Below, one piece after another: positions 11,380 through 42,815 of a stretch of 48,244 nucleotides of DNA. A program made the position numbers and the translations under genes. The notes beneath the pieces were generated by a model. The model had not been told where the DNA came from and did not search any database. It worked only from the letters and a program-made list of their open reading frames with translations. Every line of letters starts with the position of its first letter. Positions within the stretch are counted from its first letter, which is position 1. The DNA comes from Pseudolabrys sp. (GTDB lineage: Bacteria > Pseudomonadota > Alphaproteobacteria > Rhizobiales > Xanthobacteraceae), in contig JAFIGS010000015.1 of the NCBI GenBank assembly GCA_017849615.1, positions 1-48,244 of the forward strand, given 5' to 3'.

Positions 11380-11405
11380 GGAACCGCGTTTCGCTCGCGC
11401 GCGTT
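11380..11405 (+). promoter_or_regulatory. EcfG-type general stress promoter
   Basis: GGAAC at 11380-11384 and CGTT at 11402-11405 are separated by 17 bp, an exact match to the alphaproteobacterial EcfG consensus GGAAC-N16/17-CGTT. It ends 32 bp before the start of the small acidic protein, a normal promoter distance. Confidence 0.8.
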
Positions 11406-11437
11406 GGGGCCCTGATGCCTATCGAAGGAGATCGCCG

Positions 11438-11746
11438 ATGCCCCGAAAGCCACGCAACCCCGATCTCGAGAGCAACACCGCGCCGGACCTCATCGACGAG
11501 GACCGGCGCCGCGACCTCCCGAAGACGCGGCCCGATACGCTCGGCGAGCGCACCGGGCGCGGCGAGGAGGTGCCGGCGGGCGGTGGCTTCACGCCGCCCG
11601 AAGATGGCGGCAATCCGCAGCATCCTGTCCATGACGAGGATGAGGAGGACATGATGCCGGAGGATTACGAGCGCGAGATCGACAGCATCGACGGCGCGGA
11701 GCTGGACGACGACGAGGAAATCGAAGAGGACGACACGGTGCACTGA
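11438..11746 (+). CDS. Acidic, probably disordered small protein (102 aa), stress-regulated
   Basis: A soluble protein with a basic N-terminus (MPRKPRNPDLESN), a Gly/Pro-rich middle and a strongly acidic C-terminal third (DEDEEDMMPEDYEREI, then ELDDDEEIEEDD). No fold or catalytic motif is visible. The composition suggests intrinsic disorder. AAGGAG sits 8 bases before the ATG and fixes the start. The exact EcfG promoter just upstream predicts induction in the general stress response (starvation, osmotic, oxidative or desiccation stress). Function is unknown; a nucleic-acid-mimic, metal-buffering or chaperone role would be guesswork. Confidence 0.78.
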   Translation: MPRKPRNPDLESNTAPDLIDEDRRRDLPKTRPDTLGERTGRGEEVPAGGGFTPPEDGGNPQHPVHDEDEEDMMPEDYEREIDSIDGAELDDDEEIEEDDTVH

Positions 11747-11776
11747 CGCGCGGCTCGGCTCTGCTATAGTTCCGGG

Positions 11777-12238
11777 GTGAATCTCTATTTCGCTTACGGC
11801 TCAAACATGCACCGCGCCGCCATGACGGCGCGCTGTCCCGCTGCCCACGCCGTCGGCGCCGCGCGGCTCGACGGCCATGAGTTCTTTATCGGCGTCGATG
11901 GCTGGGGGTCGGTGCGCCGCGCGCCGGGGCGCACCGTGCATGGCGTGCTGTGGCGGCTGACGCCGCGGGATCTCGCAGCGCTTCACGCCTACGAACTGCT
12001 CCACAAGGAAATTTATCTGGTGCGCTATCTTCCGGTCCGGGTCGGTTCGCGCACCGTGCTGTCCATGGTCTATCTCCTGCGCCGCACCAGCGCCGGGCGG
12101 CCCAAGCCCGGCTATGCCGAAATGTGCGCGGCGGCGGCGCGGAGCTGGGGCCTGCCGGAGCGTCATGTCCGCGTCATCGCGCGGTGGTCGATATCGCGCT
12201 GGACCGGCAGCCGGCTGATCGGGCAGGGCGAGGCATGA
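11777..12238 (+). CDS. Gamma-glutamylcyclotransferase-like protein
   Basis: A 153-residue protein of the GGCT/AIG2 fold (PF06094-like). It starts with the family's YGSN substrate-binding motif (LYFAYGSNMHRAAM). A hydrophobic core follows (VHGVLWRLTPRDLAALHAYE), in which Glu of AYELLHKEIY may be the catalytic acid. Family members cyclise gamma-glutamyl groups to 5-oxoproline, often in glutathione turnover. The start is GTG, with YGSN placed eight residues in, as in relatives. It lies 10 bp upstream of the acylphosphatase gene and 30 bp after the acidic protein, so these genes may be co-transcribed. Confidence 0.75.
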   Translation: MNLYFAYGSNMHRAAMTARCPAAHAVGAARLDGHEFFIGVDGWGSVRRAPGRTVHGVLWRLTPRDLAALHAYELLHKEIYLVRYLPVRVGSRTVLSMVYLLRRTSAGRPKPGYAEMCAAAARSWGLPERHVRVIARWSISRWTGSRLIGQGEA

Positions 12239-12248
12239 GGGAAGCGCG

Positions 12249-12551
12249 GTGAGCGAAGCGGTGATTGTCCATCTCGTCGTCCACGGTCGTGTCCAAGGTG
12301 TTGTCTACCGCGCCTTCGTCGAGAGCGAAGCACGGACGCGAGGTCTTCACGGCTGGGTGCGCAACTGCCGCGACGGCACCGTCGAGGCCGTGCTCGCCGG
12401 CGATGCGGCGCTGATTGAGGACATGACCGCCGTCTGCAAGCGCGGACCGTTCGGCGCGCGCGTCGATGCCATCCATCGGTCCGACGGCCATGCCTCGTCG
12501 CTCAAAGAGCGTGCGCCGGGTCAGGTGTTCTCGGTGCTGCCGACGATCTGA
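12249..12551 (+). CDS. acyP: Acylphosphatase
   Basis: A 100-residue small alpha/beta protein with the full acylphosphatase signature: VHGRVQGVVYRAF, whose Arg binds the phosphate, and GWVRNCRDGTVEAVLAG, whose Asn positions the water. It hydrolyses acyl phosphates such as acetyl phosphate or 1,3-bisphosphoglycerate in the cytosol. The start codon is GTG. It follows the cyclotransferase gene by 10 bp and probably shares its transcript. Confidence 0.9.
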   Translation: MSEAVIVHLVVHGRVQGVVYRAFVESEARTRGLHGWVRNCRDGTVEAVLAGDAALIEDMTAVCKRGPFGARVDAIHRSDGHASSLKERAPGQVFSVLPTI

Positions 12552-12591
12552 ACGCGGCGTTTGTTTTATCCGGATACTGTGATGGCAGACG

Positions 12592-12618
12592 AAAAAAAAA
12601 GCCGCCATTTGCGGCGGC
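12592..12618. terminator. Strong intrinsic terminator, best on the minus strand
   Basis: GCCGCC at 12601-12606 pairs with GGCGGC at 12613-12618. On the minus strand the hairpin is followed by nine T. It terminates the leftward small gene at 12631. It also lies after the rightward acylphosphatase gene, where the tail CCTTTCC is weaker. Confidence 0.8.
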
Positions 12619-12630
12619 CTTTCCAGTTTC

Positions 12631-12801
12631 TCACGCGGTCTTGTCGATCGTCTGGCCGGTGCCTGGCGCCGGCGCCGCCTGGATCGGGGACTGCGCCCCC
12701 GTATCGTCCGCGTCACCATCCACGTCAGGACCAGTGCCTTCTGCGCGCTCCATGCCGCTTGACGGCATGATCGGCGCTGAGCCGATAGCTGGAATGCTCA
12801 T
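12631..12801 (-). CDS. Small hypothetical protein, 56 aa
   Basis: It begins MSIPAIGSAPIMP and continues Gly/Asp/Pro-rich with an acidic patch (DVDGDADD). There is no signal peptide or membrane helix, and disorder is likely. AGGAG lies 8 bases before the ATG and a strong terminator follows the stop, which together support a real small gene despite its length. An open frame on the opposite strand over the same bases lacks such signals. Function is unknown. Confidence 0.6.
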   Translation of the reverse strand: MSIPAIGSAPIMPSSGMERAEGTGPDVDGDADDTGAQSPIQAAPAPGTGQTIDKTA

Positions 12802-12942
12802 TGCGTTTCTCCTGCAGCCGCCCCTTGTCCTTTCATTGCGCAATGGACATGAAAACTCTGTTAAATGAAATGTGGGTCAAAACCTGACGGCTGTTTATTT
12901 TAAATCGGGATGCTCACCGGAAGGGAGAGAATGGTATCAGCA

Positions 12943-13674
12943 TCAGGGCGCGGCGGCGTCCGCAGCTTGCGCGTTTACAGTCGTCCCGAACAATTCCTCG
13001 AACGCCCGCCGGAAGCTGATGTCGAATTCCGGCATGGTCGTCGTGTGGCCGAGATCGGCGAGGCTGGTGACGCCGTAGCGTTGCACCGAGACGCCGCAGG
13101 GCACGATACCGCCGAAGTGCGAGAGGTCGGGCTCGATATTGACGGCGACGCCGTGCAGCGTCACCCATTTGCGCACGCGGATGCCGAGCGCGGCGATCTT
13201 GTCCTCGAAGCCGTCTCCCTTGTCGGACCGTTTCACCCAGACGCCGATGCGGTCCTCGCGCCGCTCGCCGCGCACATTGAAGGCGGCGAGGCTGCGGATG
13301 ATCCATTCCTCGAGCGTGGCGACGAAGCGGCGCACATCAGGCCCGCGCCGGCGCAGGTCGATCATGACATAGCCGACCCGCTGGCCGGGGCCGTGATAGG
13401 TCATCTGGCCGCCGCGGCCCGAATCGAACACCGGGAATCGGGCGTCGAGGACGTCGGCAGCATCGGCGGACGTGCCGGCGGTGTAGAGCGGAGGGTGCTC
13501 GACCAGCCAGACGAGTTCCGGCGCCTCGCCCCGGCTGATGGCCTCGGAACGCGCCTCCATGAAGGCCACGGCCTCCGGATAAGGCGTCAAACCCTCGGAA
13601 ATCCACCATTCGACCGGCCGCGCGCCGGGGGCGGGCAGCATGCCGACATCGAGGAGATCGCGCGCGTTAATCAC
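12943..13674 (-). CDS. lipB: Lipoyl(octanoyl) transferase LipB
   Basis: A 243-residue cytosolic enzyme that moves octanoate from octanoyl-ACP to the lipoyl domains of E2 and GcvH proteins. The family motif [12 protein letters not shown] spans about 87-98. The catalytic pair is Lys159 ([15 protein letters not shown]) and Cys193 (IVPCGVSV). The product is needed by pyruvate, oxoglutarate and branched-chain ketoacid dehydrogenases, the last of which feeds the leucine pathway genes found here. The start is uncertain: a GTG is used here, and ATG at 13641 is an alternative. Neither has a clear ribosome site. Confidence 0.92.
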
Positions 13675-13752
13675 CGGTTAACCATAGTGAGGCGACCTTG
13701 AACCAGGCCAGTCACAGGGGCGGGCAGAGACGACATACAGGAATTTGGGAAC

Positions 13753-13995
13753 TTGGCCACTTTCGACAAGGTTTCGGTCGACATAACGGTCGTGCTCGGG
13801 ACGACCACCATGCCGATCCATCAGGTGCTCCGGCTCGGCCGCGGCGCCATCATAGAGCTCGACGCTTCCGAGGACGACGCCGTCAAGGTGCTGGCCAACA
13901 ACATGCCGGTGGCGCAGGGCACCGTCGTGGTCAACGGCAACCGCATTGCGGTCGAGGTCGGCGAACTGCTGCCGCGCTCGCCGGATATGCGGTAA
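13753..13995 (+). CDS. fliN: FliN-type flagellar motor switch protein, C-domain only
   Basis: An 80-residue protein made almost wholly of the FliMN C-terminal domain (SpoA fold): VSVDITVVLGTTTMPIHQVLRLGRGAIIEL, then NNMPVAQGTVVVNGNRIAVEVGE. FliN forms the C-ring that contacts CheY-P and the export apparatus. It is shorter than enteric FliN (137 residues) because the N-terminal region is absent. The start codon is TTG with GGGA a few bases upstream. No other flagellar gene is in this window, so it is an orphan copy either serving a flagellum encoded elsewhere or retained alone. A strong terminator follows. Confidence 0.82.
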   Translation: MATFDKVSVDITVVLGTTTMPIHQVLRLGRGAIIELDASEDDAVKVLANNMPVAQGTVVVNGNRIAVEVGELLPRSPDMR

Positions 13996-14020
13996 CACGC
14001 ACCCAAGTCGCACACAGACG

Positions 14021-14054
14021 AAAAAAAAAGCCCCGCAAGCGGGGCTTTTCTTTT
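14021..14054. terminator. Bidirectional intrinsic terminator
   Basis: GCCCCGC and GCGGGGC form a 7-bp stem with an AA centre, flanked by A9 on the left and TTTTCTTTT on the right. It serves fliN on the plus strand and the tRNA-Leu gene on the minus strand. Confidence 0.85.
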
Positions 14055-14073
14055 GCAAAATCACTTCGGATTT

Positions 14074-14158
14074 TGGTGCGGCCGAGAAGACTCGAACTTC
14101 CACGGTGTTACCCGCTGCCACCTCAAGGCAGTGCGTCTACCAATTCCGCCACGGCCGC
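14074..14158 (-). tRNA. tRNA-Leu (anticodon GAG)
   Basis: Read on the minus strand, the 85-nt gene starts GCGGCCG and ends CGGCCGC-A-CCA, giving a 7-bp acceptor stem with encoded CCA. The anticodon arm is CTGCC-TTGAGGT-GGCAG, so the anticodon is GAG, reading CUC and CUU. A long variable arm (class II) and the TTCGAGT T-loop fit a leucine tRNA. Confidence 0.95.
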
Positions 14159-14306
14159 ATATCGTGAGTGACCGAAATCACCCTCAGCGGCGGTCCTGTA
14201 TCAAATAGGGTCCCGCCACACAAGGGCCGAAGGCGCTTTCCCGGGCCTTCGCCGGTGGATTTTTCGTCGTCCCGTCAATCCGTTAGCCGGGCGGCCGATT
14301 TGGGCC

Positions 14307-14720
14307 TCACACCGCTTCGATGCGGATCGGCTTGGCGCCTTCGTAGAGGACGGCGCGGCCGAATTCGTAGAGCCGGTCCATGCCCGAGGTCAGGGTGATG
14401 AAGTGGTTGCCGGCGAGCTGGCCGAGCTTCGAGGCGAAATGCACGGCGCCGTAGGACAGCAGAATTTCGGTTTCGCTGATGCCGCCGGGATAAACGATCA
14501 TCTGGCCGGGATGCGGATAGCTGGTGTGGTTTTCGTAGGTGAGGCCGAGGTCGAGATCGCCGAGCGGGACCCAGACGCCTTCGCCGCTCCAGCGGACGTG
14601 AATAACCTTCTCCTCATAGGGCAGCAGCTTCTTGAACACCGCGACGGTCTTGGGCGCGAGCTCGGTCTCGAACTTCGCGTCGAACACGAATGAGCCGGCG
14701 GTGATACGAAGCTTGTCCAT
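14307..14720 (-). CDS. DUF3830 family protein (cyclophilin-like fold)
   Basis: A 137-residue soluble protein with the DUF3830 pattern: KLRITAGSFVFDAKFE, then IHVRWSGEGVWVPLGDLDLGL, the ENHTSYPHPGQ loop and LGQLAGNHFITLT. The family has a cyclophilin-like beta-barrel and no proven activity. Members often lie near catabolic hydrolases and permeases. AGGAG 7 bases before the ATG sets the start, and the open frame upstream is spurious. It is separated from the deacetylase gene upstream by about 100 bp and may be an independent unit. Confidence 0.8.
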   Translation of the reverse strand: MDKLRITAGSFVFDAKFETELAPKTVAVFKKLLPYEEKVIHVRWSGEGVWVPLGDLDLGLTYENHTSYPHPGQMIVYPGGISETEILLSYGAVHFASKLGQLAGNHFITLTSGMDRLYEFGRAVLYEGAKPIRIEAV

Positions 14721-14818
14721 GAAGCGCTCCTGGTATGTCGAAGGGATTCCAGCCCCGTTTCGCCGGCGATGCTGCACCGACAGGCGCTTTCTGACAATCC
14801 GCCGGCCGGCGAATGCCG

Positions 14819-15685
14819 TCAGGGGCTGATGACGGTCGAAACGACCCGGGGCCATCCCGGCTTTTCCGTGGCCGCGACGTCGGCCTGGCCGCGCTCCGGC
14901 ACCGAGGCCGGCCGGTCGCCGACGGGGACGGCCTGCACGATCCGGTAGCCATTGGCCTTCAGGCGCTTGAGCAGCATCGGCACGGCGCGGGCGGTCGCCG
15001 GATGGATGTCATGAAGCAGCAGCACGCCGCGGTGGCCTTTGGCCTCGATGCGCGCCATCGCGCGTTGCACGATCTGTTCGGCGGTAATGCCGCGATGCCA
15101 GTCGTCGGCGACCTCATCGGCGCTCCACACCGACAGCGATTGGGACTCCGCATAGGTTTCGATCTGCCGCGAGCGCGACAGTCCCGGCACGCGGAAGAAC
15201 GGCGCCAGGGCGCGTTCGTCGCCGAGCGCCGCCTTGACCGCCGCAATGCCATCGCCGATTTCGCCGGCGACGCGCGCCTGCGCCATTTGATTCATCCGCA
15301 GCGGATGGCGGTGGCTGTGGGTACCCACGACATGGCCGGCATTGTAGATGCGGCGGACCATGTCCGGATTGGCGCGCGCCATGGTGCCGACCAGGAAGTA
15401 GGTGACCTTGACGCATTCGGCGGCGAGCGCGTCGAGCACGCGGTTGGTGTAGGGCGGCAGCGGGCCGTCGTCGAAGGTGATGACGACTTCATGGTCTTCC
15501 AGCGGCAGCGATTGCCGGTACTGCATCGTGCCGATGCGCGGCAGTTCGTTGCTGTCGACCGCGATGGTGCGGCTGGTGCCGAGCGCGTCGGGATTGGTGC
15601 AACCCTCGGCCTTCGCCGCCGTCGAAAAAGCCGCAAGACCCAGCGCGCTGCCGGCCAGCAGCAGCGCCGTACAAAAACGAGACAT
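14819..15685 (-). CDS. Secreted polysaccharide deacetylase (NodB-type), copy 1
   Basis: A 288-residue protein with a signal peptide (residues 1 to about 27, ending AAKAE) and a carbohydrate esterase 4 domain. Motif 1 is TFDDGP (Asp72, Asp73), motif 2 is the metal-binding H123-S-H-R-H127, motif 3 is FFRVPGLS, and a late LLLHDIH supplies the catalytic His. It would remove N-acetyl groups from a cell-wall or surface glycan in the periplasm. It lies next to a second copy with the same CTNPDALGTSR-type start of the mature region. GTG at 15697 is an alternative start. Confidence 0.88.
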   Translation of the reverse strand: MSRFCTALLLAGSALGLAAFSTAAKAEGCTNPDALGTSRTIAVDSNELPRIGTMQYRQSLPLEDHEVVITFDDGPLPPYTNRVLDALAAECVKVTYFLVGTMARANPDMVRRIYNAGHVVGTHSHRHPLRMNQMAQARVAGEIGDGIAAVKAALGDERALAPFFRVPGLSRSRQIETYAESQSLSVWSADEVADDWHRGITAEQIVQRAMARIEAKGHRGVLLLHDIHPATARAVPMLLKRLKANGYRIVQAVPVGDRPASVPERGQADVAATEKPGWPRVVSTVISP

Positions 15686-15879
15686 CGAAAGCACCACCCG
15701 AATAACCCATGCTCCGCGCGAATGATCGTTGCACGCGCTGCGGAGCCCCGCCGGAGACCCTAGCGGCGGAGTGCCGAGGCCTTAAGCAGGAATTGGCCGA
15801 GGGCGGCCGCGGTGGGGGTTTTGCACAGTTGTATTTTTGCCGCTGCGGCAAAAACAGAACAGGGGCGGAGAGGCTTGTG

Positions 15880-16662
15880 TCAGTTTGTGACGGCGCCGTG
15901 CGCCGCGACGACGTGGACGATGCGATAGCCGCGCGCTTTGAGTTCGCGCAGCAGCCGCGGCACCATCGCCGCGGTTTGCGCCTTGGTATCGTGCAGCAGC
16001 ACAATCCCGCGTCCGACACGCTCGATGCGCTGCATCAGCTTTTGCAACTGCACATCCGGCGACATCGGCTCCCAGTCGCTGGCCCAGACATCGGCGCCGA
16101 AAACGACGATGCCGCGTTCCTGCAGCCGATCGAGCAGAGGCTGGCTCGAGGCAAATCCGGGGAAGCGGAAAAACGGCGTTGACGGCGTGCTGCGGGCGAC
16201 GCCGGTGAGCGCGAACTCATCGCGCGAAATGCCGCGATTGATCTCGGCTTCGGCCTTGGCAAGAGGCAGGTGGCTGAGCAGCGGGTGGGAGTAGGTGTGG
16301 TGGCCGATGCTGTGGCCTTCCGCCCGGGCGCGCCGTGCGAGCCCGGGATGGGCATCTGTGTTGCGGCCAAGCAGAAAGAAGGTGGCGCGCACGCATTCGG
16401 CCTTGAGCACATCGAGCACGCGCGGTGTGGTCGTCGGCCACGGACCGTCGTCGAAGGTCAGGACCAATTCCTTGTCGGCAAGGGGCAGGGTATCGGGGAA
16501 ATGCTTGCGGCCGACGCGGGGCGTGGTCGCAGCATCGACGTTGAGCACCCGGAACGTGCCCAGCGCGTCCGGCCGCCCGGTGCAGGCTTCGTTTGCGGCC
16601 GCGATCGACGGCGCGCTCAGCGCACCGATGGCAGCAAGCAGGAATGCAGTAACACCGCGCAT
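15880..16662 (-). CDS. Secreted polysaccharide deacetylase (NodB-type), copy 2
   Basis: A 260-residue protein with a signal peptide (MRGVTAFLLAAIGALSAPSIAAA) and a carbohydrate esterase 4 domain: TFDDGP at 69-74, metal site H122-T-Y-S-H126, FFRFPGFAS, and the late IVLLHDTK. The mature start, ACTGRPDALGTFRVLNVD, parallels copy 1 (CTNPDALGTSRTIAVD), so the pair arose by duplication and then diverged. AGGGAA 6 bases before the ATG sets the start. The gap of about 190 bp between the copies leaves room for a separate promoter. The glycan acted on is unknown; peptidoglycan is the simplest guess. Confidence 0.88.
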   Translation of the reverse strand: MRGVTAFLLAAIGALSAPSIAAANEACTGRPDALGTFRVLNVDAATTPRVGRKHFPDTLPLADKELVLTFDDGPWPTTTPRVLDVLKAECVRATFFLLGRNTDAHPGLARRARAEGHSIGHHTYSHPLLSHLPLAKAEAEINRGISRDEFALTGVARSTPSTPFFRFPGFASSQPLLDRLQERGIVVFGADVWASDWEPMSPDVQLQKLMQRIERVGRGIVLLHDTKAQTAAMVPRLLRELKARGYRIVHVVAAHGAVTN

Positions 16663-16893
16663 CGAGTTCCCTGACCGAGCACCATTTGGCCGACTCTCCG
16701 TTGAGGCGTTTAGGTGGAGGTCGTCCGCCGCGTCAAGCGCCGCCGGCGCGAACCAAAAATGCGAGCATTTGCTGTTGTTTAGTTCGGAATGCCGCAAACG
16801 GTTACGCTTCATTCACCTTGTTTGCTGACCCGGCATTAAGCCTGCTGGGGTAAGCCTTTACGGGTGACCGCGGCCTGTCCGCGGAGAAGTCGT

Positions 16894-32587: not shown

Positions 32588-32692
32588 GCGCGGCGCGCGC
32601 CGCATCGCAACCAAAGTTCCATTCACGCGTTGATCCGCCGCTGAAGGCCGAGCCCGGTGTCCGGGTTCCGTGTCCTTCACGCGGGGACATGC

Positions 32693-35563: not shown

Positions 35564-35746
35564 CTAGTCGTCGAGCGCTTCCTTCAGCTTGTCCTTGGCG
35601 CCGCCGTAGGCGTTCTGCGCCTTGCCGGCAACCTGATCGGCCTTGCCTTCGGTTTCGAGCTTGGCATCGCCGGTCACCTTGCCGGCGACTTCCTTCACCT
35701 TGCCCTTGGCCTGGGTCAGAGAGCCTTCAACACGATCTTTATTCAT
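35564..35746 (-). CDS. CsbD-family stress protein
   Basis: 60 residues of the CsbD type (PF05532): KDRVEGSLTQAKGKVKEVAGKVTGD, then KADQVAGKAQNAYGGAKDKLKE. It is a very hydrophilic, helical-repeat protein lacking aromatic residues apart from one Tyr. CsbD proteins accumulate under general stress, and their molecular role is unknown. AAGGAG 6 bases before the ATG sets the start. An exact EcfG promoter is centred about 50 bp upstream, in line with the sigma-B control of Bacillus csbD. Confidence 0.9.
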   Translation of the reverse strand: MNKDRVEGSLTQAKGKVKEVAGKVTGDAKLETEGKADQVAGKAQNAYGGAKDKLKEALDD

Positions 35747-35786: not shown

Positions 35787-35812
35787 AACGCGCCGCCGCC
35801 GTGGGATGTTCC
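35787..35812 (-). promoter_or_regulatory. EcfG-type general stress promoter of the CsbD gene
   Basis: On the minus strand GGAAC (35812-35808), 17 bp, CGTT (35790-35787). The -10 end is 40 bp from the CsbD start codon. Confidence 0.85.
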
Positions 35813-35842
35813 TCACGTTATTTTCTGTCCGTGACGGAATCG

Positions 35843-35933: not shown

Positions 35934-36221
35934 TTACTTGCCGGTGCCGCCGGCATTATCATTCGGCTTGGCCGACGGCGACGACGGATTGGCGGTCGGC
36001 TGGTCTGCCGAGGTTCCGGTGGTCGCGCGCGGCGCCGTGCCGGCCGGCATGTCGGCGGTGCCCTTCGGCTGCGCGCCGCTCTTGCCCATGTTGCCTTCCT
36101 GCGTCGGCGCGGCATTGATGCTGCCGGGCGCGGTGGTCTTGCCGTCGTTGGTCTGCGCGCTGGCGATCGACACGCCGGCAACGATCGTGGCAACGGCGGT
36201 CATGATGGTCAGCGTCTTCAT
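35934..36221 (-). CDS. Small exported low-complexity protein, 95 aa, stress-regulated
   Basis: A signal peptide (MKTLTIMTAVATIVAGVSIASA, cleavage before QTNDGK) is followed by a mature part rich in Thr, Ala, Pro, Gly and Ser with little hydrophobic content, so it is probably disordered in the periplasm. AGGAGG before the ATG sets the start. The exact EcfG promoter 59 bp upstream implies induction in the general stress response. No family is recognised. The composition resembles the N-terminal part of the DUF1236 protein next door, which may reflect shared ancestry or just shared bias. Confidence 0.75.
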   Translation of the reverse strand: MKTLTIMTAVATIVAGVSIASAQTNDGKTTAPGSINAAPTQEGNMGKSGAQPKGTADMPAGTAPRATTGTSADQPTANPSSPSAKPNDNAGGTGK

Positions 36222-36279
36222 CACGGTCCTCCTGTTTGTTCGTTGATCGGTTTTCGTTGTTTCGCAAACACGCGATGAC

Positions 36280-36305
36280 AACGAGCATTCCGAGATTCAA
36301 GTTCC
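36280..36305 (-). promoter_or_regulatory. EcfG-type general stress promoter
   Basis: On the minus strand GGAAC (36305-36301), 17 bp, CGTT (36283-36280), 58 bp before the start of the small exported protein gene. Confidence 0.85.
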
Positions 36306-36346
36306 GGGAACCTGTGTGATTTCTCAACACGGTGCCGTTTGAAATG

Positions 36347-36381
36347 CCGCGGCGCGGAACCGCGAAGGTTCCGCGCCGCGG
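36347..36381. terminator. Perfect 15-bp palindrome after the DUF1236 gene
   Basis: CCGCGGCGCGGAACC at 36347-36361 and its exact complement at 36367-36381 enclose the loop GCGAA. It begins about 20 bp past the DUF1236 stop. No T-run follows on the minus strand (CATTTC), so it may stabilise the 3' end or bind a factor rather than act as a simple terminator. Confidence 0.6.
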
Positions 36382-36402
36382 TCGCATCGGGTGCCGTGTG
36401 CG

Positions 36403-37059
36403 TCAGGCGTCGAGCACGGCGACGATCTCGCGGGTCGCCGGGTCGATGACGAGGATGTTCGAGCCGACGAGGATGTAATTGAAGCCGCGCCAGCGCGGAT
36501 AGATCGTTACCACCTCGGCGGGCAGCGGATAGTACCGCACGGTATCCGGCACGCGCGTGCCGACGCTGATCGAGATGTTGACGTTAGCCTTCTCGACCTT
36601 CTGCTGCTTGATCACCGAGGTGATCCTGGTGCGCTGCTCGGTGGTCAGGTTGGCGCGTGCGCCGCTCGCACCCTGACCGCTGGTGGAAGGTGCGGCCTTG
36701 GTGTCGTCGGCACGACCGTCGGCGCCGGCATTGCCGGGCTTCATGCCGCTCTTGTCGTCCTTCATGCCGGGCTCCGCCGCCGAACCGCTGCCGCTCTGCG
36801 GCGACGCAGCGCTGGGCTTGTCGCCGGCGCGGGGCTTGTCGGCGCTTCCGGCGCTCGGCGGCGCGCCCTGGCCGGTGGTCTCGGGCATGCCGTTCTTGCG
36901 CTCGCCGGCATTCATCGGCGGGGCGACCTTGTCGGGCGTCGCTTTCTGCTGCGCCGCGGGGGGCGAGGCCGGCGGCGCGGCATTGGTCTGCGCATGGACG
37001 GCGCCGGCTGACAATGCAAGCGCCACGGCGGCGGTGGTGAGCAGTCGGGTTCTGGTCAT
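36403..37059 (-). CDS. DUF1236 domain exported protein, stress-regulated
   Basis: 218 residues: a signal peptide (to about 23, AVHAQ), a long Ala/Pro/Gly/Lys-rich low-complexity region (about 25-135), a short helix (LTTEQRTRITSVIKQQKVEK) and a C-terminal DUF1236 domain of about 60 residues (TRVPDTVRYYPLPAEVVTIYPRWRGFNYILVGSNILVIDPATREIVAVL). The domain is found almost only in Hyphomicrobiales and has no known role. It may bind the outer face of the envelope. GAGAGGAA precedes the ATG. The exact EcfG promoter 45 bp upstream places it in the general stress regulon. Confidence 0.87.
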   Translation of the reverse strand: MTRTRLLTTAAVALALSAGAVHAQTNAAPPASPPAAQQKATPDKVAPPMNAGERKNGMPETTGQGAPPSAGSADKPRAGDKPSAASPQSGSGSAAEPGMKDDKSGMKPGNAGADGRADDTKAAPSTSGQGASGARANLTTEQRTRITSVIKQQKVEKANVNISISVGTRVPDTVRYYPLPAEVVTIYPRWRGFNYILVGSNILVIDPATREIVAVLDA

Positions 37060-37103
37060 AGCGAGTTCCTCTCTGATACCGCCCCGAACATTCCAAACCC
37101 CTC

Positions 37104-37128
37104 AACGCCGTGCCCCCGCCGCCGTTCC
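37104..37128 (-). promoter_or_regulatory. EcfG-type general stress promoter of the DUF1236 gene
   Basis: On the minus strand GGAAC (37128-37124), 16 bp, CGTT (37107-37104), 44 bp from the DUF1236 start codon. It also lies about 90 bp before the divergent mccB start. Confidence 0.82.
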
Positions 37129-37217
37129 GGAGGTCCATTGCCTTGCGGTTCCGGCCGGGGCACCTTGCCGCCGCAGACAAGACGGCCGGCGATTCCGCGG
37201 GCCGGGGAGGCCTGACT

Positions 37218-38825
37218 TTGACGATCCTGAAATCGGCGATCGATGCTTCGTCGCCGGAATTCGCCGGCAATTCCGTTCGCATGCGGGCGCTGCTCGACGA
37301 GCTGCGCGCTCGCCGCGCCGAAGCCGCCCTGGGCGGCAACGAGAAGGCGCGCGCCCGCCATGTCGGCCGCGGCAAGCTCCTGCCGCGCGACCGCGTCAAC
37401 AACCTGATCGATCCCGGCTCGCCCTTCCTCGAGATCGGCGCGCTTGCCGCCTACGGCATGTACGACGACGCCATCCATGGCGCCGGCATGATCGCCGGCA
37501 TCGGCCGCATCGAGGGCCGCGAATGCATGGTGGTGTGCAACGATTCCACCATCAAGGGCGGCACCTACTATCCGATGACGGTGAAGAAGCATCTGCGCGC
37601 GCAGGAGATCGCGCGCGAGAACCGCTTGCCCTGCGTCTATCTCGTCGATTCAGGCGGCGCCAACCTGCCGCACCAGACCGAGGTGTTTCCCGACCGCGAG
37701 CATTTCGGCCGCATCTTCTACAATCAGGCGACGCTTTCCTCGCTGCGCATTCCGCAGATCGCGGTGGTGATGGGCTCCTGCACCGCCGGCGGCGCCTATG
37801 TGCCGGCGATGTCGGACGAGACCATCATCGTCAAGAACCAGGGCACCATCTTCCTCGGCGGCCCGCCGCTGGTGAAGGCCGCGACCGGCGAGGTGGTGAG
37901 CGCGGAGGATCTCGGCGGCGGCGATCTGCATGCGCGGAAATCGGGCGTCGCCGATCATCTGGCGCAGGACGATCATCACGCGCTTTCCCTTGCACGGCGC
38001 ATCGTCGCCAATCTCAACAGCCGCAAGTCGCCCGACATCGCGCTGGAGACGCCGCGCGACCCGTTGTATGACGCCGCCGAACTTGACGGCCTGGTGCCGG
38101 TCGATCTCAAGAAGCAATACGACATCCGCGAGGTCATCGCGCGGCTGGTGGACGGCTCGGCGTTCGACGAGTTCAAGCAGCTTTACGGCACGACGTTGGT
38201 CTGCGGCTTTGGCCGCATTCACGGCATGCCGGTCGGCGTCATCGGCAATAACGGCATCCTGTTCTCGGAGAGCGCGCTCAAGGGTGCGCATTTCATCGAA
38301 CTGTGTTGCCAGCGCCGGATTCCGCTGCTGTTCCTGCAGAACATCGTCGGCTTCATGGTCGGCCGCGATTACGAGGCCGGCGGCATCGCCAAGGACGGCG
38401 CCAAGCTCGTGACCGCGGTCGCCTGCGCGCAGGTGCCGAAGATCACGGTCATCGTCGGCGGCTCCTACGGCGCCGGCAATTATGGCATGTGCGGCCGCGC
38501 CTATTCGCCGCGTTTCCTGTTCACCTGGCCGAACGCGCGCATCTCGGTGATGGGCGGCGAGCAGGCGGCGAGCGTGCTCGCCACCGTCAAGCGCGACAAT
38601 ATCGAGGCCGGCGGCGGATCATGGTCGCAGGTCGAGGAAGAGGAATTCAAGACGCCGATCCGCGAGCAATACGAGGAAGAGGGCAATCCCTATTACGCCA
38701 CGGCGCGTCTGTGGGACGACGGCATCATCGCGCCGAGCGAAACGCGCCGCGTGCTGGCTTTGGCTTTCAGCGCGGCGCTCAACGCGCCGGTGCCGGAGAC
38801 GAAGTTTGGGGTGTTCAGGATGTGA
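37218..38825 (+). CDS. mccB: Methylcrotonyl-CoA carboxylase beta (carboxyltransferase) subunit
   Basis: A 535-residue carboxyltransferase subunit with the two crotonase-like halves: N-half with [49 protein letters not shown] and [16 protein letters not shown]-half with [46 protein letters not shown] and [17 protein letters not shown]. The last motifs are typical of methylcrotonyl- rather than propionyl-specific subunits. It carboxylates 3-methylcrotonyl-CoA in leucine breakdown, with the alpha subunit encoded at 45221. The TTG start follows GGGGAGG at good spacing and gives the usual family length; the frame runs further upstream. Confidence 0.92.
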
Positions 38826-38828
38826 GCT

Positions 38829-39797
38829 ATGCGACCTGGTGTCTCTATAAAGCTTGGTGAATTGCGAGAGATAGTCGCGGCCATTCGTAGAGTTGACCTA
38901 AAAGTGGCAGACGTTGCTGCTCTTTCCCGCCGAGTTCAGTATCTGCTCCATGGCTTTGTTATCCAAACGCCTATCCTAGAGCCCGGCACGAAAGTTTATA
39001 GAGCCGTTAAGTGGGATCAAAAATACGATCTGACTGCGAGATTGGGCTATCCGCCGCCAGAGAAGATTTCAAAATTCGGTAGAGCGAACACCATTGGACA
39101 GTCCTTGTTTTACTGCAGCGTAGGCTGGAATGCTCCTCAGTTTGAGCTTCACTTAGAGAAAGGGGACTTCTTTGCTCTATCCCGGTGGAGGGTCACCGAG
39201 CGGCTTATTGTAAACAATTTGGGGTTCACCGACCGAGTATTTAGTCGCCTTCAATCAGATCGAAGTTCGATACCGCAGTGGATACGGCGCGATCAAAATC
39301 CTCAAACGCCGTCAGCGCGATTGCTAGATAAATTCTTCAATGAAGAATTTACGCGCGAAGTGCCGGCGGGAGAAGAGCACTTATACAAAATGTCGGTCGC
39401 TATCACGCTGCCATTTCTGCACGACGTGGCTGAAGACGAAAAAATTGAAGGGGTTAGAGATCACAGGGTGGCCGGGCTGCTTTATCCTGCGATCGCAGTG
39501 CTTGGACATGGCGACAATCTGGTCTTTAAACCGGAGATCGTAGACAGATATCTGGCGATTGAGCAGGTGGAATACAATCAAGTCGTTGATCGAAAAGTCG
39601 ACGGAAAATACGTTACCTATGAGAATAAACATATTGATTTTGCTGACGCCTTTAGTCCCGCTGGGTGTATCGAATGGAAGAACAGGTGCGCGGAATGGAA
39701 CATTGTCATTCCACCAGGGGGGAGCGTTCGGATTAGTAAGGAAAACGGAAGGGCGGTGTATAGAAACGAGCGTGGAGAAGTAATTGATCCTGCTTAG
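38829..39797 (+). CDS. RES-domain protein (NAD+-targeting toxin fold), AT-rich
   Basis: 322 residues. Residues about 50-200 match the RES domain: VYRAVKWDQKY (Arg58), PEKISKFGRANTIGQSLFYCS (Arg85, Asn87, Tyr95) and ALSRWRVTERLIVNNLGF. RES toxins of RES-Xre modules degrade NAD+ with an ADP-ribosyltransferase-like fold. This protein is about twice the usual toxin length, with a C-terminal extension of about 120 residues of unknown fold. No Xre/DUF2384 antitoxin is adjacent. Base composition and codons (AAA, TTA, ATA) are much richer in A+T than all neighbours, a sign of transfer. It starts 3 bp after mccB, so it may be read on that transcript. Confidence 0.8.
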   Translation: MRPGVSIKLGELREIVAAIRRVDLKVADVAALSRRVQYLLHGFVIQTPILEPGTKVYRAVKWDQKYDLTARLGYPPPEKISKFGRANTIGQSLFYCSVGWNAPQFELHLEKGDFFALSRWRVTERLIVNNLGFTDRVFSRLQSDRSSIPQWIRRDQNPQTPSARLLDKFFNEEFTREVPAGEEHLYKMSVAITLPFLHDVAEDEKIEGVRDHRVAGLLYPAIAVLGHGDNLVFKPEIVDRYLAIEQVEYNQVVDRKVDGKYVTYENKHIDFADAFSPAGCIEWKNRCAEWNIVIPPGGSVRISKENGRAVYRNERGEVIDPA

Positions 39798-39800
39798 CCC

Positions 39801-39866
39801 GTAGGGCGGATTAGCGCAGCGTAGTCCGCCATTGTCTGTGGCTTCGCTGCACTCAGCCCACCCTAC
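39801..39866. repeat. Palindromic intergenic repeat
   Basis: GTAGGGCGGATTAGCGCAGCGTAGTCCGCC at the left and CCCACCCTAC at the right form an imperfect inverted repeat of a widely dispersed proteobacterial type. It follows the RES gene directly and may mark the right edge of the foreign segment. Confidence 0.65.
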
Positions 39867-39889
39867 AAGCCATTCCGACGTGTTGCTCC

Positions 39890-40105
39890 ATGCCCGCCAA
39901 ATCAAAAAAGATCGGCCACGATTGGGAAGTCTTCATCCGCTATCTCGAGGATGGCGAGGACGACAGCCTGCAGATCGAAAGCTGCTGGACGGCTGAGGAG
40001 GCGATCGCCAAGGCGCGCGATGCGCTCAATGCCTATGCAAAAAACGACGACGACAAGGACCAGTTCGAGATCATGGCCGTCGTGCGCTCGGATGCGGAGA
40101 TATGA
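39890..40105 (+). CDS. Small acidic hypothetical protein, 71 aa
   Basis: A soluble protein with basic residues at the start (MPAKSKKIGHDW), then a mixed alpha/beta pattern (EVFIRYLEDGEDDSLQIESCWTAEEAIAKARDALNAYAKND) ending in a strand (FEIMAVVRSD). The strand-helix-strand layout suggests a compact fold. No ribosome site stands out. The normal GC content contrasts with the AT-rich RES gene to its left, so it is probably not its antitoxin. It lies between two repeats. Confidence 0.6.
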   Translation: MPAKSKKIGHDWEVFIRYLEDGEDDSLQIESCWTAEEAIAKARDALNAYAKNDDDKDQFEIMAVVRSDAEI

Positions 40106-40119
40106 GCGGCCTGTCCCGG

Positions 40120-40215
40120 CCTCATGCTGAGGAGCATCGCGTCAGCGATGCGTCTCGAAGCATGGGGCCGCGCCATCCTTCGAGATGGTGCGTGCCGCGC
40201 CTCCTCAGGATGAGG
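40120..40215. repeat. Compound palindromic repeat
   Basis: CCTCATGCTGAGGAG at the left end is mirrored by CTCCTCAGGATGAGG at the right. Between them GCATCGCGTCAGCGATGC forms its own hairpin, and TCTCGAAGCATGG faces CCATCCTTCGAGA. This matches a multi-copy intergenic element common in Bradyrhizobiaceae-like chromosomes. Confidence 0.7.
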
Positions 40216-40252
40216 GCGGACGAGGCGCTTCGACCATGCTATGCACGTCCTC

Positions 40253-40945
40253 ATGAAACACACCTCCGCTCTCATCGTCGGCGCCGGCTCAGGCCTGTCC
40301 GCCTCGCTCGCGCGGCTTATGTTGAAAGAGGGGATGCAGGTCGCGCTCGCGGCGCGCTCGGCTGAAAAGCTCAGGGAGTTCGCGGACGCCACTGGCGCGC
40401 GCACCTTCGATTGCGACGCTGCGAAACGCGACGAGGTCGAGACGCTGTTCGACGACCTCGACGCCGCGAACCTGACGCCGGATGTCGTCATCTACAATCC
40501 GAGCTACCGCGTGCGCGGTGCCTTCGTCGATCTCGATCCAAAGGAAGTCGAGAAGACCTTGGCCATCACCGCCTTCGGCGGCTTCATCGTGGCGCAGCAG
40601 GCGGTGCGGCGTATGCTGCCCAAGGCTAAGGGCGCGCTGCTGTTCACTGGCGCGTCGGCGTCGGTGAAGGGCTATGCGCAGTCGGCGCCGTTCGCCATGG
40701 GCAAGTTCGCGCTGCGCGGTCTGGCGCAGAGCCTCGCACGCGAGCTCGGCCCGCAAGGCATTCACGTGGCGCATTTCGTCATCGACGGCGGCATCGCCAG
40801 CGCGCGCCGCCCGGCCGATCCCGCCAAGCCCGATGCGCTGCTCGATCCCGACGCCATCGCCGAGAGCTACATGCAGGTCCTCAGGCAGCCGCGCAGCGCC
40901 TGGAGCTTCGAGGTCGAGCTGCGGCCGTGGGTGGAGAAGTTCTAG
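40253..40945 (+). CDS. SDR-family protein with Tyr-to-Phe change in the catalytic motif
   Basis: A 230-residue Rossmann-fold protein. The cofactor loop is VGAGSGLSASLARLML, and the NNAG-like motif reads YNPSYRVRGAF. The YxxxK catalytic motif reads F147-A-M-G-K151, so the proton-donating Tyr is absent while Lys and the upstream Ser (GASASVKG) remain. FALRGLAQSLARELGPQGIHVAHFVIDGGI is typical of a small SDR subgroup sharing this Phe. It may bind NAD(P) without classical dehydrogenase chemistry or use another donor. The start is taken at the second ATG, nearer the first strand. Confidence 0.83.
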   Translation: MKHTSALIVGAGSGLSASLARLMLKEGMQVALAARSAEKLREFADATGARTFDCDAAKRDEVETLFDDLDAANLTPDVVIYNPSYRVRGAFVDLDPKEVEKTLAITAFGGFIVAQQAVRRMLPKAKGALLFTGASASVKGYAQSAPFAMGKFALRGLAQSLARELGPQGIHVAHFVIDGGIASARRPADPAKPDALLDPDAIAESYMQVLRQPRSAWSFEVELRPWVEKF

Positions 40946-40949
40946 CACC

Positions 40950-41053
40950 GTCATTCCGGGGCGCACCGAAGGTGCGAGCCCGGAATCCATATCCCCAGCG
41001 CTGCGGAGTATGGATTCCGGGCCCGCGCGTTTTCATGCGCGCCCCGGAATGAC
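40950..41053. repeat. Palindromic repeat of the GTCATTCCGGGGCGC type
   Basis: It starts GTCATTCCGGGGC and ends GCCCCGGAATGAC, an exact inverted pair. A second inverted pair, CCCGGAATCCATA and TATGGATTCCGGG, lies inside. The same element occurs again at 47963-48062, so at least two copies are in this window. Confidence 0.85.
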
Positions 41054-41095
41054 AGAAGTCTTTTCATCACCCGCTTCGCGCGCTAAACGCCGTCC

Positions 41096-41833
41096 ATGCT
41101 CGATCTCTCTCATCTCGCTGATCTCGCCCCCACCGGCACCTTGCGCGGCGGCATCGTCGTCGCGCCGGCCAAGTCGTTGTCCTTCGCCACCAAATCCGGT
41201 GACGGCGTCGCCCAGGGCGTGCCGGTCGATCTGCTGCACGGCTTTGCCGCGCTGCTGAACGTGCCGCTGTCGCTCGCCGAGTTTCCGAACTCCGGGCAGC
41301 TCACCGATGCCATCGCCGAGGGCGCCTGCGATATGGGCTTCATGCCGCGCGATGCGGCGCGCGAGGCGCGCGTCGCCTTCGGCCCGTCCTTTTATCTGAT
41401 GGGCAGCACCTATCTGGTGCCGGCGGGCTCCGAGATATTCACCATCGAGCAGGTCAATCGCGAGGGCATCCGCATCGTCGCCATCGCCAGCACCACGACG
41501 GCGCGCGCCGCGCGGCGCACCGCGCCGCTGGCCGCGGTCGAAGAGGTTTCGAGCGTCGATCTGATGACCGCTATGGCGCAGCGCGGCGAGGCCGATGCCT
41601 TCGCGCTGTCGCACGATTCCTTCATCGGCCTGCTGCCGCGCATTCCCGGCGCGCGCGTGCTGCCGGGGCAATTCCAGCAGACCGGCATCGGCGTCGCCGT
41701 GCCGCCGGGGCGGCCGGGTGCGCTCGCCTTGGCGCGGCAACTCATCGAGACCGCGAAGGCGAACGGGCTTGCCCGCCGCGCCTTCGATGCCGCCGGGTTC
41801 GTCGATGCCGCGGTGGCGCCGCTCGACGACTGA
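41096..41833 (+). CDS. Solute-binding-protein-like (SBP family 3) protein without signal peptide
   Basis: 245 residues matching the type II periplasmic binding fold of amino-acid ABC transporters: LRGGIVVAPAKSLSF, GVPVDLLHGFAALLNVPLSLAEFPNSGQLTDAIAEGACDMGFMPRDAAREARVAFGP, and the hinge into domain 2 at YLVPAGSEI. The N-terminus (MLDLSHLADLAPTGTLRGG) carries no signal peptide, and no upstream in-frame start that adds one is apparent. No permease or ATPase gene is adjacent. It may act as a cytoplasmic binding or sensor protein, or the true start is misplaced. No ribosome site is visible. Confidence 0.75.
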   Translation: MLDLSHLADLAPTGTLRGGIVVAPAKSLSFATKSGDGVAQGVPVDLLHGFAALLNVPLSLAEFPNSGQLTDAIAEGACDMGFMPRDAAREARVAFGPSFYLMGSTYLVPAGSEIFTIEQVNREGIRIVAIASTTTARAARRTAPLAAVEEVSSVDLMTAMAQRGEADAFALSHDSFIGLLPRIPGARVLPGQFQQTGIGVAVPPGRPGALALARQLIETAKANGLARRAFDAAGFVDAAVAPLDD

Positions 41834-41836
41834 GCG

Positions 41837-42115
41837 CTACAAAGTCACCACCACCTTGGCGCTCGCGCCTTGCTCCACCGCCTCATGCGCGGCGGCGGCG
41901 TCGTCGAGGCCGAATGTGCGCGGGTCGACGCGGTTGATCGGCTTGCCCTGTGCCAGCGCGGCGCCGATGCCGCTCACGGCGCGGGCGCGCTCGGCAGCGT
42001 CAAGCTCGAACACCAGGAAGAACTGGATGCCGATGGCGTTCGCGGTAATGTTGAGTTCGACCACGGCATCGACGCCGCGCTTGTCGGTCAGCGCCGCGCG
42101 CGAGCATGCCTGCAT
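41837..42115 (-). pseudogene. Truncated zinc-type alcohol dehydrogenase/quinone reductase remnant (C-terminal part)
   Basis: The minus-strand frame reads LTDKRGVDAVVELNITANAIG, then FELDAAERARAVSGIGAALAQGKPINRVDPRTFGLDDAAAAHEAVEQGASAKVVVTL, the last quarter of an MDR-family NADPH:quinone reductase or alcohol dehydrogenase. The first three quarters, including the catalytic and cofactor domains, are missing: a stop lies about 12 codons above the visible ATG, and unrelated sequence (an EcfG promoter and a small gene) follows. It is a decayed end of a gene. Confidence 0.75.
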
Positions 42116-42118
42116 CGC

Positions 42119-42144
42119 GGAACCTGAACAAGCGTGCAGACGTT
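42119..42144 (+). promoter_or_regulatory. EcfG-type general stress promoter
   Basis: GGAAC (42119-42123), 17 bp, CGTT (42141-42144), 60 bp before the start of the 77-residue protein gene. It lies at the breakpoint of the dehydrogenase remnant. Confidence 0.82.
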
Positions 42145-42204
42145 GCCATCAGCGGAACGCAATTTAGAATGCGCTCGCAGGGAGCGACCTTCACGGAGGA
42201 AACC

Positions 42205-42438
42205 ATGACATTTCGTGTTTACAGCGGCCCGAAGGGCGCGCCGGATCCGTCGCCGATGGAAAAGCAGCGCATGCTGTACAAGGAGTTCATGTCGATGGAC
42301 GAGGCGCTGTGGTGGGCGAGCCATCTGCGTCAGCAGGGCAGGGTTGCGCTGTTCATCGAAGGCGATGACGGCAGCCGGCTCGACCGCCGCGCCATCGGCG
42401 CCGCGATCAGCGTCACGCCCTTCGCCCGCTCGGCGTGA
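42205..42438 (+). CDS. Small hypothetical protein, 77 aa, stress-regulated
   Basis: A soluble protein (MTFRVYSGPKGAPDPSPMEKQRMLYKEF, then MDEALWWASHLRQQGRVALFIEGDDGSRLDRRAIGAAI). A helix with two Trp is followed by a strand (VALFIEGDDG), suggesting a compact alpha/beta unit. CGGAGGAAA just before the ATG is a very strong ribosome site. The exact EcfG promoter upstream and the strong terminator downstream make it an independent, highly expressed stress gene. No family is recognised. Confidence 0.78.
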   Translation: MTFRVYSGPKGAPDPSPMEKQRMLYKEFMSMDEALWWASHLRQQGRVALFIEGDDGSRLDRRAIGAAISVTPFARSA

Positions 42439-42452
42439 CAGGATCGAAAAGG

Positions 42453-42485
42453 AAAAGCCCCGCCGTCCGGCGGGGCTTTTTTTTT
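42453..42485 (+). terminator. Strong intrinsic terminator
   Basis: GCCCCGCCG (42457-42465) pairs with CGGCGGGGC (42468-42476) and is followed by nine T. AAAA on the left also gives a short tail for the leftward gene at 42505, so it can act both ways. Confidence 0.88.
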
Positions 42486-42504
42486 GCGTGGAGACTGTCG
42501 CCGG

Positions 42505-42741
42505 TCAGTTGGCGCGCGTGGCGCGGTCCGGCTGGACGTTGGCGGTCACGCGGTCCCACTGCTGCTTGGCGCCCTCGGAGAGGTCGTGCCACTTCACGCC
42601 GACCACATCCCAGTTCACCATCGGCCGCGCGGCGGTGACGGTGGTGTCGCTGCTGGCAACGCCGGCATGGTTGCTGTCGTAGATGTAGGCGCCGCCGATC
42701 GTGAGAGCGCCGCCGAGAATGATGCCCAACAGAAGTCGCAT
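42505..42741 (-). CDS. Small membrane-anchored protein, 78 aa, stress-regulated
   Basis: One N-terminal hydrophobic helix (MRLLLGIILGGALTIGGAYIYDS) acts as signal anchor, then a soluble tail of about 55 residues (MVNWDVVGVKWHDLSEGAKQQWDRVTANVQPDR) lies in the periplasm. GGAG lies before the ATG. The exact EcfG promoter 49 bp upstream implies control by the general stress response. The frame upstream of the chosen start is open but lacks support. No family is recognised with certainty. Confidence 0.75.
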   Translation of the reverse strand: MRLLLGIILGGALTIGGAYIYDSNHAGVASSDTTVTAARPMVNWDVVGVKWHDLSEGAKQQWDRVTANVQPDRATRAN

Positions 42742-42790
42742 GTGCCGTTCTCCGTCCCGAAGGTTTGACGCCCCGTATTCCCGGCTAACG

Positions 42791-42815
42791 AACGGGTTTG
42801 TCGAATAAAAGTTCC
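42791..42815 (-). promoter_or_regulatory. EcfG-type general stress promoter
   Basis: On the minus strand GGAAC (42815-42811), 16 bp, CGTT (42794-42791), 49 bp before the start codon of the small membrane-anchored protein gene. Confidence 0.82.

What the first reader, a model, noticed from the sequence alone, without database searches (positions are those of the whole stretch)
11380..42815. Six exact EcfG stress promoters, mostly driving small proteins of unknown function
GGAAC-N16/17-CGTT occurs at 11380, 35787, 36280, 37104, 42119 and 42791, each with correct orientation and 32-60 bp from a start codon with a good ribosome site. With uniform base use, about 0.7 exact hits would be expected by chance over both strands and both spacings (4 x 48244 / 4^9). 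Five of six targets (102, 95, 218, 77 and 78 aa) have no assigned function; the sixth is CsbD. This ties these orphan proteins to the general stress response as a group.
Basis: partly seen in the sequence, partly recalled or inferred. Interest (0 to 1): 0.72.

Follow-up and report, generated by a model that had tools for sequence, protein, structure and literature searches.

The report
Six conserved stress-response promoters
Six small genes in this bacterium each carry the on-switch of the general stress response of its class, and related species keep the same switch in front of most of the same genes, so these proteins, most of unknown function, very probably belong to the stress programme.

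Summary
Exact GGAAC-N16/17-CGTT occurs at all six places, in the right orientation, 32-60 nt before a start codon. Shuffles give 0.71 hits on average; 0 of 100 reach 7.

The genome has a phyR/nepR-ecfG locus with the same motif before phyR. Among same-genus orthologs, 114 of 141 upstream regions carry the exact motif, against 1 of 141 for the reversed motif. With no motif assumed, GGAAC-N16/17-CGTT was the commonest spaced pair before each of the six families. Genome-wide, 41 of 89 motif sites are promoter-like against 6 of 75 control sites.

Beyond the finding: all five DUF1236 genes found in this genome have the motif, as do 11 of 24 judged elsewhere in the order. The 78-aa protein's unnamed family has a near-invariant PMVNWDVV stretch. 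The weakest case is the 77-aa gene (7 of 20).

EcfG promoters before genes of unknown function are already known; what is added is which families are tied to them. No expression data were available.

The parts
11380..11405 (+). EcfG-type promoter (GGAAC 11380-11384, N17, CGTT 11402-11405) of the 102-aa gene
   Evidence: exact motif before 11 of 12 orthologs; the twelfth (L214) has GGAAC-N17-CATT (by eye)
11438..11746 (+). 102-aa acidic hydrophilic protein, no Pfam family
   Evidence: GRAVY -1.58, Gly 8.8%
35787..35812 (-). EcfG-type promoter of csbD (N17)
   Evidence: exact before 28 of the 30 best-matching orthologs and 5 of 12 further, more distant matches
35564..35746 (-). CsbD-like protein, 60 aa
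   Evidence: PF05532, E 2.3e-20
36280..36305 (-). EcfG-type promoter of the 95-aa gene (N17)
   Evidence: exact before 12 of 19 orthologs, exact or one-step relaxed before 19 of 19
35934..36221 (-). 95-aa protein with signal-peptide-like N-terminus (by eye) and hydrophilic remainder, no Pfam family
37104..37128 (-). EcfG-type promoter of the DUF1236 gene (N16)
   Evidence: exact before 26 of 30 orthologs
36403..37059 (-). 218-aa DUF1236 protein with signal-peptide-like N-terminus (by eye)
   Evidence: PF06823, residues 149-217, E 9.8e-17
42119..42144 (+). EcfG-type promoter of the 77-aa gene (N17)
   Evidence: exact before 7 of 20 orthologs; GGAAC-N16/17-CATT before four more
42205..42438 (+). 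77-aa protein, predicted small alpha/beta fold, no Pfam family
   Evidence: pLDDT 85.6, pTM 0.74
42791..42815 (-). EcfG-type promoter of the 78-aa gene (N16)
   Evidence: exact before 30 of the 30 best-matching same-genus places, 8 of the 11 further places, and 33 of 43 named loci, which overlap these
42505..42741 (-). 78-aa protein: N-terminal hydrophobic helix, near-invariant PMVNWDVV, C-terminal helix; no Pfam family
4113..4137 (-). seventh exact motif, inside ORF 922-6405(+), taken as background

Best explanation
All six sites are promoters read by EcfG, the general-stress sigma factor of Alphaproteobacteria. Under stress, phosphorylated PhyR binds the anti-sigma factor NepR and frees EcfG; RNA polymerase with EcfG then binds GGAAC (-35) and CGTT (-10), 16-17 bp apart, and transcribes each small gene from its own promoter. 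Shown here: the phyR/nepR-ecfG locus in this genome, the motifs, their positions and their conservation before orthologs. Inferred: binding by EcfG, induction, and the proteins' roles. The likeliest role of the group (inference only) is protection of the cell and its envelope in non-growing or dried cells: two soluble hydrophilic proteins (CsbD and the acidic 102-aa protein), two proteins that look exported (95 aa and DUF1236), one membrane-anchored protein (78 aa) and one small alpha/beta protein (77 aa).
For: Seven exact hits against 0.71 expected, 0 of 100 shuffles reach 7. Core locus: PhyR (PF22029, PF22233 and receiver domain), NepR and a sigma factor with regions 2 and 4; the same motif faces phyR in 26 of 30 NepR loci examined, this genome's included, reversed control 0 of 30. 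Orthologs: 114 of 141 upstream regions exact, reversed motif 1 of 141; 359 box permutations average 0.02-0.17 sequences per family, the highest being shifted readings of the same site. The motif is the commonest spaced 5-mer/4-mer pair in each of six families when none is assumed, 106 of 135 pooled without the window's own copies, while mean spacer identity is 0.31-0.54 in all groups but a single pair. Genome-wide promoter-like enrichment 41/89 against 6/75. csbD needs EcfG in Sphingopyxis: relative expression 0.00 in the double ecfG mutant (PMC7083833, passages). The motif is the published EcfG consensus (PMC7083833, PMC3892343; passages).
Against: No expression or binding data exist here. 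The 77-aa gene has the exact motif in only 7 of 20 orthologs. Ten of 43 named loci of the 78-aa family lack the exact motif, all at 51% identity or less. More distant csbD matches have it less often, 5 of 12. Genome-wide, 48 of 89 exact motif sites are not promoter-like by my rough gene caller, so an exact match alone is not proof. Seven of 43 same-genus genomes show no NepR, yet at least four of those (G008, G027, G035, G036) keep the motif before the 78-aa gene; incomplete assemblies may explain most of this.
Confidence: 0.93

Rival explanations
1. The motif hits are chance matches in a GC-rich genome.
For: The whole genome has 89 exact hits against 75 for the reversed pattern, so many hits genome-wide could be chance; one of the seven window hits is inside an ORF.
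Against: Exact motif before orthologs in 114 of 141 regions with diverged spacers; recovery in all six families with no motif assumed; shuffles.
Confidence: 0.02
2. A different ECF sigma factor with a similar -35 preference, not EcfG, reads these promoters.
For: The genome has another sigma factor matching PhyR_sigma2 at C35:465757-465915, next to an ORF that looks by eye like an anti-sigma factor. The AAC of the -35 box is described as common to ECF sigma factors (PMC7083833 section 10).
Against: The same motif sits before phyR in 26 of 30 loci, in line with the EcfG control of phyR reported elsewhere (PMC7083833 and PMC6599016, passages), and csbD is a measured EcfG target in another species (PMC7083833).
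Confidence: 0.05
3. Only five of the six are stable members; the 77-aa gene came under EcfG only in the window's closest relatives, or is driven differently elsewhere.
For: The exact motif stands at nearly the same distance in the window and its two closest orthologs; 13 of 20 orthologs lack it, and in the other four that have it the distance differs.
Against: Four of the next-closest orthologs keep GGAAC with CATT, and CATT occurs among motifs of measured EcfG-dependent genes in Sphingomonas (PMC6599016, passages). The genome-wide rate for one such region is about 0.0015, so 6 of 19 non-own is far above chance.
Confidence: 0.25

Closest known systems
EcfG (SigT/RpoE2) regulon of the alphaproteobacterial general stress response
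   Same: Same motif, spacing and distance to start; a phyR/nepR-ecfG locus with the motif facing phyR; csbD among targets; many targets of unknown function, as reported in PMC7083833 and PMC6599016 (passages).
   Different: Species and target set differ. The 102-, 95-, 77- and 78-aa families have no Pfam name, and I found no paper in the held library holding both EcfG and DUF1236. The names SigT and RpoE2 are recalled.
CsbD-like proteins (PF05532)
   Same: 60-aa member, E 2.3e-20; csbD is an EcfG target in Sphingopyxis granuli (PMC7083833, passages).
   Different: No difference was looked for beyond the profile match.
DUF1236 proteins (PF06823)
   Same: The 218-aa protein has the domain at its C-terminus; a DUF1236 gene is strongly induced by aluminium in Rhizobium phaseoli (PMC8909678, passages).
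   Different: The passages seen do not link that induction to EcfG, and no held paper has both words; here the link is by promoter.

Membership tests
EcfG-type promoter | GGAAC -35 and CGTT -10, 16-17 bp apart | tested here: met
   Exact at all six sites.
EcfG-type promoter | Lies a short distance upstream of a gene in the same orientation | tested here: met
   32-60 nt at all six; the reversed motif has no hit in the window's contig.
EcfG-type promoter | Genome encodes EcfG, NepR and PhyR | tested here: met
   that the sigma factor is EcfG rests on its place beside nepR and phyR and its domains.
EcfG-type promoter | Conserved before orthologs | tested here: met
   114 of 141 exact overall; only 7 of 20 for the 77-aa gene.
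EcfG-type promoter | Transcription depends on EcfG; start site just after -10 | not testable with these tools
   No expression data.
CsbD family (PF05532) | Profile match above Pfam cut-off | tested here: met
   72.7 bits, cut-off 40.
DUF1236 family (PF06823) | Profile match above Pfam cut-off | tested here: met
   60.9 bits, cut-off 32.4.
DUF2188 (considered for the 77-aa protein) | Profile match above cut-off | tested here: not met
   2 of 12 members match weakly, best E 0.064; the window's own protein not at all.

The most novel reading that the evidence does not exclude
csbD, the 95-aa gene and the DUF1236 gene, with the convergent 77-aa/78-aa pair about 5 to 9 kb away, form a conserved stress module in this genus in which every gene has its own EcfG promoter, and DUF1236 and the PMVNWDVV family are dedicated general-stress envelope proteins across the Hyphomicrobiales.
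Probability: 0.45. Interest if true: 0.55.

Novelty: new member of a known kind. Interest (0 to 1): 0.42.

Why it matters
A large share of EcfG targets has no known function (stated in PMC7083833 and PMC6599016, passages), and these conserved pairings of promoter and orphan family give a short list worth testing. Linking DUF1236 and the PMVNWDVV family to the general stress response would turn 'unknown' labels into testable hypotheses about survival without growth.

Tried and rejected
A first attempt to snap ortholog starts let weak BLAST pieces move the start and gave false misses; it was replaced and its counts are not used. Searches are the same test; one search did not turn minus-strand loci round and is not used. 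My rough gene caller mis-read two spots: it placed a wrong-frame ORF over the DUF1236 gene (so 37104 is not among the 41; adding it gives 42), and it chose too late a start for PhyR.

In one search the stretch examined for L395 was placed wrongly because the contig is short; repeated, it still has no exact motif, so 26 of 30 stands.

A possible extra promoter (GCAAC-N16-CGTT at 32607, before a PLD/VTT gene) was looked for in 20 fetched stretches: the gene was found in 13, the same site in 4, with a nearly unchanged spacer, and not in the two relatives with the highest identity; left open. Foldseek of the 77-aa model against the PDB found no match at E 0.001 (best E 0.22). Pfam scans of the 77- and 78-aa alignments gave only weak matches (best E 0.064 and 0.014), and the PDB sequence search one weak match (E 0.39). 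The model of the 78-aa protein is poor (pTM 0.42). Alignment A2 leaves out two relatives with run-on C-termini (L286, L287) and one whose start I could not place (L294).

Co-loss: of 43 same-genus genomes, only G019 and G038 lack the 78-aa, csbD and DUF1236 genes together, and both are among the 7 with no NepR match; suggestive, but 6 of those 7 assemblies are listed as 69-94% complete.

Literature listings not followed beyond the listing: in part; in part; two searches found no paper.
Full report
Observation. Dinucleotide shuffles average 0.71 hits, largest 3, and none of 100 reaches 7. The six listed sites lie outside called genes and point at a start codon: 32 nt (11380), 40 (35787), 58 (36280), 44 (37104), 60 (42119) and 49 nt (42791) downstream (for this call I replaced the caller's wrong-frame ORF by the DUF1236 gene). 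The seventh lies within a 1827-aa ORF and is not among the sites with a called start 10-130 nt downstream. The whole genome has 89 exact hits and 75 hits of the reversed pattern, none of the latter in the window's contig. Seven of the 89 fall in this 1.1% of the genome (binomial p 6e-5; post hoc, because the finding was picked for them).

Targets. CsbD (PF05532) and DUF1236 (PF06823) are the only Pfam matches at E 0.01; the 102-, 95-, 77- and 78-aa proteins have none. NCBIfam adds no match above its cut-offs. The 102-aa protein is very hydrophilic and acidic (GRAVY -1.58, 35 D/E against 11 K/R, Gly 8.8%). The 95-aa and DUF1236 proteins begin with what looks by eye like a signal peptide, and the stretches after it average a GRAVY near -1.07. 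The 78-aa family has a hydrophobic N-terminus, a PMVNWDVV stretch in which P40, V42, N43, W44 and V46 are invariant in 41 aligned sequences and M41, D45 and V47 nearly so, and a C-terminal helix in a low-confidence model. The 77-aa protein is predicted as a small alpha/beta fold (pLDDT 85.6, pTM 0.74) without a significant PDB match.

Core machinery. One NepR was found in the genome. Around it lie PhyR, transcribed away from it, NepR, and a 181-aa sigma factor with regions 2 and 4. The same motif faces phyR, 27 nt from its start. Of 30 NepR loci examined (29 from relatives and this one), 26 have the exact motif facing phyR, and none has the reversed pattern (one misplaced stretch repeated without change). 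NepR was found in 36 of 43 same-genus genomes, in 35 above the family cut-off.

Genome-wide test. With a simple codon-usage gene caller, 55 of 89 motif sites and 15 of 75 control sites lie outside called ORFs; 41 of 89 and 6 of 75 have a start 0-150 nt downstream (Fisher p 5.6e-8 and 3.5e-8). The 37104 site is not among the 41 because the caller mis-read the DUF1236 gene; with it the figure is 42 of 89. Thirty of the 41 targets are at most 150 aa, median 101 aa. Pfam was run on the 36 non-window targets as called: 15 have no family at E 0.001, and 6 have no family above cut-off other than DUFs (DUF1236 three times, DUF1328, DUF3309, DUF3096); others include PhyR itself, a PAS-domain protein cut off by the stretch, an L,D-transpeptidase, a CBS-domain protein and a glycine-zipper protein. 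Some of the 41 are surely chance, as the six controls show.

Ortholog test. The six proteins were searched in 43 same-genus genomes. All listed matches were examined for the 77-aa (21), 95-aa (20) and 102-aa (12) genes, and the 30 best for the 78-aa gene (of 41), csbD (of 42) and DUF1236 (of 91 by my count of the listing). Two loci were dropped as second pieces of genes already counted (L130, L192). The exact motif is in the 150 nt before the start in 7/20 (77 aa), 30/30 (78 aa), 26/30 (DUF1236), 12/19 (95 aa), 11/12 (102 aa) and 28/30 (csbD), together 114 of 141, or 108 of 135 without the window's own copies; the reversed motif is in 1 of 141. The same boxes at the 13 other spacings from 10 to 24 give 13 hits together. 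Five of 30 DUF1236 regions also have the motif on the other strand; in four of them it is the same site, which reads GGAACG...CGTTCC and so could be read in both directions. The matches left over were then fetched for two genes: 8 of 11 further places of the 78-aa gene and 5 of 12 further csbD matches have the exact motif in the 200 nt before the match, reversed motif 0 of 23; several of those csbD matches are probably paralogs (43-73% identity). The remaining DUF1236 matches were not fetched.

When all 5-mer/4-mer pairs at these spacings were counted without assuming a motif, GGAAC/CGTT came first in each of the six families, and in 106 of 135 pooled non-own regions of 130 nt, the next pair being in 33. 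For the 77-aa gene the lead is small (6 of 20 against 5). Mean spacer identity was 0.31-0.54 in all groups but one with a single pair (0.88), so the boxes are kept while the spacer drifts. The seven 95-aa misses have TGTT or GGTT at the -10 place; four of the 13 misses for the 77-aa gene and the one miss for the 102-aa gene have CATT there (by eye; one search counts the four). Published EcfG-dependent promoters vary at the -10 box too (PMC7083833 section 10; PMC6599016 passages). In 43 named loci of the 78-aa family, which overlap the genus set and include Pseudolabrys, Pseudorhodoplanes and other Hyphomicrobiales by their record titles, 33 have the exact motif; the ten without are all at 51% identity or less.

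Genus and gene order. In six relatives checked by their coordinates (G001, G002, G007, G012, G013, G024) csbD, the 95-aa gene and DUF1236 are neighbours in the same order, with the 77- and 78-aa pair about 5 to 9 kb away.

DUF1236. The Pfam family was searched in 41 genomes across the order; 11 have it, with 41 places listed, of which 30 were held as loci. Sixteen of 30 have the exact motif 10-130 nt before an in-frame start codon, 22 of 30 with relaxed boxes, and 0 of 30 with two control patterns. Four of the 30 are this genome's own, L359 is the same gene as L348, and L354 has only 188 nt before the domain and was set aside; outside this genome that leaves 11 of 24 exact and 17 of 24 relaxed. 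All five DUF1236 genes found in this genome have the exact motif (four, the fifth). A DUF1236 gene is among the three genes most strongly induced by aluminium in Rhizobium phaseoli (PMC8909678, passages).

Literature. GGAAC-N16-CGTT is the described EcfG motif in Sphingopyxis granuli and Rhizobium etli (PMC7083833, PMC3892343; passages). csbD needs EcfG in S. granuli, and a high share of unknown-function targets is called a common feature of these regulons (PMC7083833, passages). In Rhodopseudomonas palustris ecfG rises about sevenfold in growth arrest (PMC13343836, passages). A search for EcfG with DUF1236 found no paper, DUF1236 alone found three, and Pseudolabrys with stress response and sigma factor found one microbiome paper (listing only); the library holds open-licence papers only.

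Verdict. That EcfG drives orphan genes is not new. The added value is the list of families, above all DUF1236 and the PMVNWDVV family. Direct dependence on EcfG and the proteins' functions remain to be shown.

Noticed in passing
window 32607-32631 (+): GCAAC-N16-CGTT, 61 nt before the start of a 701-aa PLD/VTT-domain gene; in four relatives the whole 25-mer is nearly unchanged, spacer included, so it may be something other than an EcfG promoter.
   Followed up: partly
window 41837-42115 (-): 92-aa ORF matching only the end of a zinc-binding dehydrogenase domain, below Pfam's cut-off; probably a remnant of a longer gene, directly beside the 77-aa gene's promoter.
   Followed up: no
window 922-6405 (+) and 45203-47059 (-): Long ORFs (1827 and 618 aa) without any Pfam match at E 0.001.
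   Followed up: no
G000 C35:465757-465915 (L392): A second sigma factor matching PhyR_sigma2, followed by an ORF that looks by eye like an anti-sigma factor; by context probably not EcfG.
   Followed up: partly
NepR loci, e.g. L109 and L394-L422: All 26 phyR-facing exact promoters go on as GGAACTTT after the -35 box, a T-rich extension also seen before several orthologs of the 78-aa gene.
   Followed up: no
L163, L166, L174, L177 (DUF1236 promoters of relatives): The promoter reads GGAACG...CGTTCC, so the same site is an EcfG-type motif on both strands, between DUF1236 and what in the window is a divergent carboxyltransferase gene.
   Followed up: no
G038 and G019: The only 2 of 43 same-genus genomes that lack the 78-aa, csbD and DUF1236 genes together are both among the 7 with no NepR match; G038 is listed as 99% complete.
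   Followed up: partly
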